From assembly GCF_011758645.1 (NCBI RefSeq), contig NZ_JAAMOZ010000002.1, positions 62,001-126,000 of the forward strand: a stretch of DNA of 64,000 nt. Reading direction: 5' to 3'. Origin of the DNA: Brooklawnia cerclae. Its GTDB lineage: Bacteria; Actinomycetota; Actinomycetes; Propionibacteriales; Propionibacteriaceae. Each line of letters starts with the position of its first letter. The stretch's first letter is position 1. The notes beneath the pieces are model-generated. The model saw only the letters and a list, made by a program, of their open reading frames with translations, did not search any database and was not told where the DNA came from. A program made the translations under genes and the position numbers. Below are positions 16,072 through 36,253 of the stretch, one piece after another.

Positions 16072-16144
16072 TGGAGCATAGGGGGCTCGAACCCCTGACC
16101 TACGGCTTGCAAAGCCGTCGCTCTACCAACTGAGCTAATGCCCC
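16072..16144 (-). tRNA. tRNA-Ala (anticodon TGC)
   Basis: A full cloverleaf can be drawn on the minus strand. The acceptor stem GGGGCAT/ATGCTCC has one G-U pair, the D arm contains AGCTCAGTTGGTAGAGC, the anticodon stem-loop CGGCTTTGCAAGCCG shows TGC at 16109-16111, and the T arm is GGGGTTCGAGCCCC. The discriminator base is A and the CCA end is not encoded. Confidence 0.97.
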
Positions 16145-31817: not shown

Positions 31818-31847
31818 TTGACACCCGTGGCGTGACAGGGTTATAAA
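31818..31847 (+). promoter_or_regulatory. Near-consensus housekeeping promoter for the ncRNA
   Basis: TTGACA (31818-31823), an 18-bp spacer, then TATAAA (31842-31847). This is the best sigma-70-type match in the window and stands out against the GC-rich background. It points rightward into a region without a gene start, predicting transcription from about 31854. Confidence 0.7.
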
Positions 31848-31853
31848 TATCGA

Positions 31854-32075
31854 ACCGAGATTCCTTCGGGAACTCGGGACCGAGATGGAAACGACAGTCG
31901 AGTCCCCTTTCCCGGCAGCGATCGAAGCGATTCGAGACGGCTGGTCGAGAATGAGGGGCCGCCCGAAGGACGGGGTCGGCGACCGATCGTCCATAGCGGT
32001 GATTGCAGGAAGGTCCGACCTGGAATCAGTGAGGCCCGAGCCAACCCATACTTGGCTCGGGCCTCACACGTTTGA
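31854..32075 (+). ncRNA. Candidate structured small RNA (about 220 nt)
   Basis: The stretch between the strong promoter and a 16-bp perfect terminal hairpin has no convincing gene but several stable helices. At the 5' end, CCGAG-a-TTCC-ttcg-GGAA-CTCGG has a UUCG-type tetraloop (about 31856-31878). In the middle, GGACG-ggg-TCGG-cga-CCGA-t-CGTCC (about 31969-31993) follows. The transcript would run convergently toward the reductase gene that ends at 32184. tmRNA, RNase P RNA and T-box signatures were looked for and not seen. A 6S/Ms1-like or other trans-acting RNA is possible; no Rfam family is claimed. Confidence 0.55.
32029..32067 (+). terminator. Strong hairpin terminator after the ncRNA
   Basis: GTGAGGCCCGAGCCAA (32029-32044) and its exact complement (32052-32067) form a 16-bp stem with a 7-nt loop, followed by ACGTTTGATT. 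The T-run is modest, but stem strength and placement between convergent transcripts support termination, perhaps in both directions. Confidence 0.7.
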
Positions 32076-32183
32076 TTCTCGATGGCGCGGTTGCCGTCGT
32101 GATGACGACACGCCGGGCGCCGTCGAAGACGATAACAGGTACCTGGCCCTCACCCAAATCGTGCGCGCCCGCGTCCCGGCTGC

Positions 32184-33593
32184 TCAGTGCTCCAGCAGCC
32201 CGCCGACGGTGTGAAGCCGTCGTCCAGCCTCGGCTATCGAGCCGCTCAACGACGGGTACACGGTGAACGCCTGTGCGGCCTGGTCGACGGTGAGCCTGGC
32301 CGACACACACAGCGACAGGGCGTAGATGAGTTCGCTCGCCCCCGGCGCCACGACGACCCCGCCGACGATGATGCCGGTGGCCGGAAGGCAGAACAGCTTG
32401 ACGAAGCCGTGTTGGTTGCCCTGCATCTTCGCCCGTGCGTTGCCGCGCAGTTCGAGCACGACCGAGCGCACGGCGATCTGCTCGGCGTCCACCTGTCTCT
32501 GCGTCACGCCGACCGTGGCGATCTCGGGCGAGGTGAACACGTTGGAGGCCACCGAGGTCAGATCGAGCGGCGTCACGGAGTCGCCGAGCGCGTGCCACAT
32601 GGCGATGCGGCCCTGCATGGCGGCGACCGACGCCAGCGGGAACACGCCGGTGCAGTCGCCGGCCGCGTAAATGCCGGGGACGCTCGTCCGCGAGACGCCG
32701 TCGACCTCGATGTGCCCGGACGGTTTGAGGGTCACCCCGCACGACTCGAGCCCGATGTCCCGGGTGTTGGGGATCGACCCGACGGCCATCAGCACGTGAC
32801 TGCCGTGCACCTCGCTGCCGTCGGCCAGGCCCACCACGACCCCGTCGCCCTCCCGGCGGGCGGACACGGCGCGGGCCCCCGACCGGATGGCCATGCCCGA
32901 CGCCTCGAACACCTCCTGCAGGACGCGGGCCGCGTCCGGGTCCTCGCCGGGCAGTACCTGGGCCCGCGAGGAGACCAGCGTCACCCCGACGCCCAGACGG
33001 TTGTAGGCGCTGGCGAACTCGGCGCCCGTCACGCCCGAACCGACGACGATGAGATGGCTGGGCGGGGTGGACAGGCCGTACAACTGGGTCCAGTTGAGGA
33101 TGCGCTGCCCGTCCGGGGTCGCGTCCGGCAGTTCGCGCGGCCGCGTCCCCGTGGCGATCAGCACGATGTCGGCCGGCAGCCGGCGTTCGCCGTCGGGGGT
33201 CTCGACGACGACGGCGTGCGGATCCTCCAGCCGCCCGTTGCCGTGGACGATCTCGACGCCCTCGGACGCGAGCCTCGCCTCGATGTCGCGGCTCTGGGCG
33301 GCAGCCAGATCGAGAAGGCGCCGGTTGACCGCGGCGAGGTCGACGCGGATCGCGTCCGCGGGATGACCGAGCGCGGAGTCGACGGGACGCAGGCCGAGGG
33401 CGGCGCTGTCGCGCAGGCGTGTCATGGCGTCCGAGGTCGCGATGAGTGATTTCGACGGGACGACATCGGTGAGTACGGCCGAGCCTCCGAGCCCGCGAGG
33501 ATCGATCAGGGCGACCCGGCCGCCCAGCTGGGACGCCACCAGCGCCGCCTCGTAGCCGCCGGGCCCGCCACCGAGGATCACCACACTTGTCAT
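32184..33593 (-). CDS. Disulfide-less lipoamide-dehydrogenase homologue (LpdA / NAD(P)H-quinone reductase type)
   Basis: The protein has 469 residues. FAD motif [17 protein letters not shown] and NAD(P) motif [20 protein letters not shown] are intact, but the redox-cysteine motif reads [13 protein letters not shown], both Cys being replaced (Ala, Val), and the C-terminal catalytic His motif is YPSLSGS. This matches mycobacterial Rv3303c-type LpdA, which reduces quinones with NAD(P)H rather than lipoamide. GACAAT ending 6 nt before the ATG suggests a leaderless start. It diverges from the NUDIX gene across 58 bp. Confidence 0.85.
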
Positions 33594-36087: not shown

Positions 36088-36121
36088 GTGTCCGATTTTT
36101 TCACACCACCGAGGCGGTGGT

Positions 36122-36231
36122 CCCTTCGACAGGCTCAGGGGGCCCTTCGACAGGCTCAGGGGTCGCAGGCGGGGTCCCTTCGACAGGCTCAGGGGGCCTT
36201 CGAGAAGCGGACCCCTGAGCCTGTCGAAGGG
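36122..36231. repeat. CCCTTCGACAGGCTCAGGG repeat cluster with hairpin
   Basis: Three direct copies of a 19-mer (36122-36140, 36143-36161, 36176-36194) and one inverted copy (36213-36231) lie between nadE and the mutarotase gene. The last direct and the inverted copy can form a 19-bp perfect hairpin that may act as a terminator downstream of the mutarotase. The core TTCGACA-GCTCA is shared with the 19517-19667 array. Confidence 0.85.
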
Positions 36232-36253
36232 TAACGACCGCGCCGCCGAGGCG

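What the first reader, a model, noticed from the sequence alone, without database searches (positions are those of the whole stretch)
31818..32075. Unannotated structured RNA with the best promoter in the window
A near-consensus TTGACA-18-TATAAA drives a region with stable hairpins (including a UUCG-type tetraloop) and a 16-bp terminal stem, and no credible gene. The predicted length is about 220 nt. The strong promoter suggests high expression, as for 6S/Ms1-type or other housekeeping RNAs, but I cannot match a known family.
Basis: partly seen in the sequence, partly recalled or inferred. Interest (0 to 1): 0.7.

Follow-up and report, generated by a model that had tools for sequence, protein, structure and literature searches.

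The report
Actinobacterial small RNA with antisense hairpin
The window carries a real, previously uncatalogued folded RNA gene of actinobacteria whose final hairpin loop is mirrored by a second, separately started hairpin RNA, which suggests a two-RNA switch that could be tested directly at the bench.

Summary
TTGACA-18-TATAAA (31818-31847) is the only site with 10 or more of 12 matches in the 64 kb. The region folds with z = -5.4 and ends in a 16-pair terminator. No Rfam family reaches its threshold here.

Covariance-model matches occur in 67 of 198 genomes of the same family and 36 of 186 of a second family, but in only 2 of 396 across the phylum. 33 of 48 pairs show two-sided changes. A loop-loop contact covaries. 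No start codon is conserved.

Most homologues end in a terminator loop CYCAUAC. In 51 of 85 loci a second promoter-like unit (CGTGTYK, then a -10-like hexamer) stands before a hairpin with the complementary loop. In the window it lies on the minus strand and uses the same hairpin (CGTGTCG at 32112-32106).

Best reading: a structured sRNA controlled by an antisense hairpin RNA, working like the par_pAD1 RNAs but without a toxin gene. It met no Ms1 or 6S test that I could make. Transcription, targets and function are not shown.

The parts
31818..31847 (+). sRNA promoter: TTGACA (31818-31823), 18 nt, TATAAA (31842-31847)
   Evidence: AGACCCTTGACA is identical in the syntenic G001 homologue
31854..32070 (+). 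proposed sRNA, about 215 nt, start and end inferred
   Evidence: start taken as about 7 nt after the -10; not measured
31855..31877 (+). 5' hairpin with UUCG loop (sequence not conserved)
31880..31999 (+). rod: outer stem 31880-31889 with 31990-31999, two pairs with compensatory change between G000 and G001
31958..31980 (+). core hairpin (Hb); its loop holds GGAC 31968-31971, proposed kissing partner of 32013-32016
   Evidence: window; covariation in relatives
32000..32028 (+). hairpin H3; its loop holds GUCC 32013-32016
32029..32067 (+). terminator hairpin, 16 pairs, loop CCCAUAC 32045-32051; read on the minus strand it is the proposed 5' hairpin of the antisense RNA (loop GUAUGGG)
32075..32080 (-). 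weak -10-like hexamer GAGAAT (4 of 6), 7 nt before the hairpin on the minus strand
   Evidence: sequence; position by comparison with relatives
32106..32114 (-). GGCGTGTCG element; CGTGTCG begins 61 nt before the minus-strand loop
30595..31671 (-). flanking gene: class IV aminotransferase (ilvE-like)
32184..33593 (-). flanking gene: FAD-dependent pyridine nucleotide-disulphide oxidoreductase (lpdA-like), convergent with the sRNA

Best explanation
31854 to about 32070 (+) encodes a structured regulatory sRNA of a family found in Propionibacteriaceae, a second family that includes Intrasporangiaceae records, and a second family of the window's order. It folds into a 5' hairpin, a branched rod, a hairpin H3 whose loop kisses a loop of the rod, and an intrinsic terminator. 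Its level or activity is set by a second short RNA that starts at, or just before, a hairpin with the complementary loop. In the window that RNA starts on the minus strand at about 32068 and uses the same DNA hairpin, so the two RNAs begin pairing loop to loop at the terminator, as in par_pAD1. Inferred steps: both transcripts exist; they kiss through CYCAUAC:GURUGRG; pairing titrates or destabilises the sRNA; a factor binding CGTGTCG gates the antisense promoter. Shown here: homology, structure, covariation, complementary loops and fixed promoter geometry. What the sRNA body acts on is unknown; trans-acting control of mRNAs or of a protein is inference.
For: Homologues: R1 in 32 of 198 family genomes, R2 in 67 of 198, 36 of 186 of a second family, 70 of 391 of the order, 21 of these in family f3. 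R2 was trained on 21 sequences of genera g9 and g17, so hits there are expected by construction. Structure: 33 of 48 pairs with two-sided changes, 0 of 500 shuffles, slid controls 5-15 pairs. Kissing loops: mean score 10.06 over 53 genomes against 7.73, sd 0.26, maximum 8.53 in 500 re-pairings. CCAACTCATACTTGG occurs once in each of 5 of 54 relatives and its backward control nowhere. Antisense unit: among 121 distinct hairpins with loop GTATGRG, 53 have CGTGTYK 50-62 nt upstream and 0 on the other strand. Without fixing the loop, 65 of 70 strong hairpins 54-64 nt after a CGTGTYK site carry GTRTGRG. In 85 loci, 51 have such a unit; read row by row: 9 share the sRNA's own terminator, 27 lie upstream on the same strand, 2 downstream on the same strand, 9 divergent, 4 downstream on the opposite strand. 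Orientation changes while loop complementarity stays. par_pAD1 shares the convergent layout, shared terminator, loop start and U-turn (passages of PMC7472228).
Against: No transcript data. 34 of 85 loci have no unit by the strict test, among them the congener G001, g8, g18 and most of f3. In the window the -10 is weak (GAGAAT) and the loop lacks the U of the YUNR motif. Loci were fetched partly by searching for this hairpin, so counts are not from an unbiased sample. With only the two Brooklawnia-type sequences the covariation is weak (3 pairs; 60 of 500 shuffles as high) and the window's kissing pairs do not vary. The kissing null ignores relatedness; several of the 53 automatic folds gave no contact. 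Five g34 loci read (L111, L112, L115, L117, L144) have other terminator loops; of 14 second-family hits read, 10 have the CUCAUAC hairpin, 3 variants, 1 none. 6 of 8 genomes of the window's own genus gave no R2 match.
Confidence: 0.58

Rival explanations
1. The hairpins are only terminators (bidirectional where genes converge); the sRNA is real but has no antisense partner.
For: The window hairpin lies where the sRNA and the lpdA-like gene converge. Seven partner-only loci lie beyond gene ends (L157, L161, L162, L174, L185; L197, L199). 34 of 85 loci lack the unit.
Against: CGTGTYK at a narrow distance on one strand only, 53 of 121 against 0; -10-like hexamers about 8 nt before the hairpin; loop sequence kept when the two hairpins are separate.
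Confidence: 0.25
2. It is a 6S or Ms1 homologue.
For: Strong promoter, about 215 nt, no ORF; Ms1 has been predicted in other Propionibacteriaceae genera (Auraticoccus, Friedmanniella, Microlunatus; PMC9130861 section 22).
Against: No Rfam hit; no HAD-hydrolase flank; branched and kissing structure; no R2 hit in the phylum sample beyond G000 and G306.
Confidence: 0.05
3. A type I toxin-antitoxin locus of the par_pAD1 kind whose main RNA encodes a small toxin.
For: Convergent layout with shared terminator and loop complementarity.
Against: No start codon column is shared by 8 or more of 20 aligned RNAs outside the terminator stem; longest internal ORFs range from 0 to 52 codons over 26 RNAs with no common sequence.
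Confidence: 0.04
4. A plain trans-acting or 3'-antisense sRNA against the convergent lpdA-like mRNA.
For: It points at the 3' end of that gene in G000 and G001.
Against: Flanks differ between genera (aminotransferase, exchanger, glycosylase, adenosine deaminase, thioredoxin-like), so the neighbour is not the common target.
Confidence: 0.05

Closest known systems
par_pAD1 RNA I/RNA II (Fst/Ldr type I toxin-antitoxin), passages of PMC7472228
   Same: Convergent promoters, shared bidirectional terminator, pairing begun by complementary terminator loops, YUNR U-turn in the main RNA (met in relatives, not in the window).
   Different: No toxin ORF or direct repeats seen; the antisense RNA would begin at the hairpin rather than end there; in 42 of 51 loci with a unit the two hairpins are separate DNA copies.
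Ms1 RNA (PMC9130861, sections 3 and 22 read in full, passages elsewhere)
   Same: Actinobacterial intergenic sRNA.
   Different: About 300 nt with central bubble, HAD-hydrolase synteny and RNA polymerase core binding; none of the testable ones met here.
6S RNA (as described in PMC9130861 section 3)
   Same: About 200 nt and predicted to be highly expressed.
   Different: 6S is one hairpin with a promoter-like bubble; this is branched with a kissing contact.
Scr3920 (RF02828), best sub-threshold Rfam match
   Same: Long terminator-like stem, minus strand 32180-32026, E 0.0037-0.0061.
   Different: 25.9 bits against a gathering score of 88; most of the score comes from the shared hairpin; taken as chance.

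Membership tests
Ms1 RNA | HAD-hydrolase (CicA-like) gene as neighbour | tested here: not met
   Flanks are Aminotran_4 and Pyr_redox_2 proteins; synteny phrases
Ms1 RNA | about 300 nt with central bubble and two short end hairpins | tested here: not met
   about 215 nt by promoter-to-terminator distance; branched fold
Ms1 RNA | binds RNA polymerase core | not testable with these tools
   needs immunoprecipitation
6S RNA | Rfam covariance match | tested here: not met
6S RNA | single hairpin with open-promoter-like bubble | tested here: not met
   three-way branch and H3 contact
par_pAD1-type type I TA | convergent promoters sharing one terminator hairpin | tested here: inconclusive
   layout present in the window and in 8 other loci of the 85 (rows read); minus-strand -10 weak in the window; no transcript data
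par_pAD1-type type I TA | toxin ORF in the main RNA | tested here: not met
   no conserved start or peptide
par_pAD1-type type I TA | YUNR U-turn in the main RNA's terminator loop | tested here: not met
   window loop CCCAUAC; homologues mostly CUCAUAC, which fits YUNR
Any Rfam 15 family | score above gathering | tested here: not met
   only a tRNA at 16072-16144 in the window

The most novel reading that the evidence does not exclude
A widespread actinobacterial two-RNA switch: a non-coding structured RNA with a kissing-loop core, and a tiny trans-acting anti-hairpin RNA under its own CGTGTCG-controlled promoter. The anti-hairpin gene has been re-placed around the sRNA gene (same hairpin read backwards, upstream, downstream, divergent) while the seven-base loop complementarity is kept. 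The sRNA body is a new class of effector RNA.
Probability: 0.4. Interest if true: 0.8.

Novelty: new variant of a known kind. Interest (0 to 1): 0.62.

Why it matters
Actinobacteria have few characterised structured sRNAs. This one has family-level conservation, is absent from Rfam 15 at threshold, and comes with a built-in hypothesis: paired loops that swap arrangement but not sequence. That makes mechanism, targets and the CGTGTCG-binding factor directly testable in harmless soil and sludge bacteria. If right, it would be an antisense-controlled RNA of the par_pAD1 layout used for ordinary regulation rather than for a toxin.

Tried and rejected
Known families: Rfam at gathering and at E up to 10, and again on relatives: nothing credible; Scr3920 and RsmW matches rest on the terminator hairpin. 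The first DNA search also hit G011 at 1653939, a short chance-like stretch at the end of an ORF; the true G011 locus is elsewhere. Phages (47-base query), plasmids and viral contigs gave no match, so no sign of a mobile carrier. A coding reading was tested and dropped. A partner elsewhere in G000: three CCNNGTATGRGNNGG sites, one being this hairpin, one inside an ORF, one not examined. A common target from the neighbours: flanks differ. A tRNA-anticodon mimic (loop CUCAUAC) was considered and dropped because the window loop lacks U33; this is reasoning, not a test. Papers: searches showed no report of this RNA; listings only, in an open-access library, two papers opened. Of the 48 stretches, I read 19; four (Acidobacteria, Herpetosiphonaceae, two Rhodobacteraceae) look like chance. 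One search includes weak hits; of 14 read one (L236) has no such hairpin.

Label caution: one search prints 18 'shared'; nine of these (genus g34) are divergent separate hairpins, moved by reading the rows. Seven of 76 loci were dropped by the script.

Full report
Observation. The promoter is the only one with 10 or more of 12 matches in the window. The fold is far more stable than dinucleotide shuffles (z -5.38). The flanks are an Aminotran_4 protein, divergent from the RNA, and an FAD oxidoreductase, convergent with it.

Where it comes from. The window lies in G000, contig C2. By equal contig length, congener G001 is the record 'Brooklawnia sp. isolate AS27yjCOA_64', genus g9 includes Propionicimonas, g17 Micropruina (M. 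glycogenica) and g12 Propioniciclava; the second family f9 includes records titled Intrasporangiaceae.

Synteny in the genus. In G001 the same RNA lies between the same two genes, with 79% identity over the 3' half. In G004, G005, G006 and G007 the two genes are 45-157 bases apart by match ends; in G002 a 516-aa ORF lies between them; G003 had no such oxidoreductase match at E 1e-100. None of these six gave an R2 match. So it is patchy within the genus.

Homologues. A two-sequence covariance model (A3, R1) found 32 of 198 family genomes at E 0.1. A second model from 21 sequences of g9 and g17 (A7, R2) found 67 of 198 at E 0.01, 2 of 396 in a phylum sample (the own genome and G306), 36 of 186 in the family of G306 at E 0.001 and 70 of 391 in the order, 21 of them in f3. 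Searches of over 40 genomes used stricter filters, and weak hits at these thresholds include some false ones.

Structure. In A7, 91% of cells pair, 33 of 48 pairs have two-sided changes and no shuffle reaches this; sliding the partners by 1-3 columns gives 28-52% paired. The helices are an outer rod, two hairpins on a three-way branch (the first often with a GNRA loop), H3 and the terminator. In many species the loop of the second branch hairpin is complementary to the H3 loop, and the pair changes together: GGACG:CGUCC, GGAUG:CAUCC, AAGACGA:UCGUCUU, GUGACG:CGUCAC. Over 53 genomes the mean score is 10.06 against 7.73 for re-paired loops, none of 500 above 8.53; relatedness is not controlled. 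In the window the contact would be GGAC (31968-31971) with GUCC (32013-32016), unchanged in G001.

The loop. The terminator loop is CUCAUAC in most homologues, CCCAUAC in the window and in G031. The 15-mer CCAACTCATACTTGG occurs once in 5 of 54 relatives, each from a different genus, and its backward control in none. The other loops seen are told in the Against line.

The antisense unit. About 300-400 bases upstream of the RNA in Propionicimonas and Micropruina lies a second hairpin with the same stem letters but the loop GUAUGAG, the exact complement. A -10-like TAGAAAT, TAGACAT or TACAAAT stands about 8 bases before it and CGTGTCG about 34 bases before that hexamer. Over the loci held, 53 of 121 GTATGRG hairpins have CGTGTYK 50-62 bases upstream of the loop (peak 57-59) and none has it at that distance on the other strand. 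Not fixing the loop, 65 of 70 strong hairpins at that distance carry GTRTGRG. In several Propionicimonas and Micropruina loci the inner stem has a G-U pair on the GUAUGAG strand, which fits transcription of that strand; other loci have a plain mismatch there.

Arrangements. Of 85 loci, 51 have the unit: 9 on the same hairpin read backwards (G000, G161, G683, G684, G685, G765, G306, G769, G961), 27 upstream in the same direction, 2 downstream in the same direction, 9 divergent, 4 downstream and opposite (rows read; the script's own labels lump the nine divergent ones with 'shared'). In the last four the loop is GUGUGAG, which still pairs with CUCAUAC through one G-U. 34 loci show none. In the window the unit shares the hairpin; this would explain why the loop could change from CUCAUAC to CCCAUAC, since the antisense loop changes with it. 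That last step is inference.

What it works like. par_pAD1 has convergent promoters, a shared bidirectional terminator and a U-turn loop that starts pairing (passages of PMC7472228). The window layout matches in plan. It is not filed as a member: no toxin ORF is conserved and the window loop lacks the YUNR U-turn. Ms1 and 6S were tested as far as possible and not met.

Odds. A real structured RNA gene family: about 0.95. An antisense hairpin RNA as partner: about 0.6. The target of the sRNA body: open.

Noticed in passing
L241-L243, L245-L247, L250, L252 (family f3) and L118-L123 (genus g18), upstream of the RNA: DnaA-box-like TGTGGAY/RTCCACA sites cluster before the RNA: 27 in 16 upstream stretches of 350 bases (two of the 16, L240 and L244, have none) against 4 in the remaining 31.6 kb of the same loci. 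None in the window.
   Followed up: partly
L111, L112, L115, L117, L144 (genus g34): A subfamily with a similar body but a plain terminator loop, found by R2.
   Followed up: no
L248, L249, L251 (family f3), L138 (genus g7): Short CUCAUAC RNAs of two hairpins plus terminator lie just after an adenosine deaminase gene in two families.
   Followed up: partly
L109, L113, L114 (genus g34): The GUAUGAG hairpin lies in front of an ORF; in L109 it is a GNAT acetyltransferase, so here the partner may be an mRNA leader.
   Followed up: partly
upstream of the RNA in genus g9, for example L057:3890-3940: Direct repeats of TGTGAC with 9-base period (26 TGTGAC-like sites in 22 upstream stretches); recalled to resemble MtrA sites, not tested.
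   Followed up: no
upstream of the sRNA's own promoter in relatives: GACACG/GCGTGTC half-sites in 32 of 69 loci and a full inverted repeat GGCGTGTC-N-GACACGCC in 11; in divergent loci these are the partner's own element.
   Followed up: partly
window 36100-36234: The ORF translation there repeats LRQAQG, which suggests a tandem of short repeated elements.
   Followed up: no
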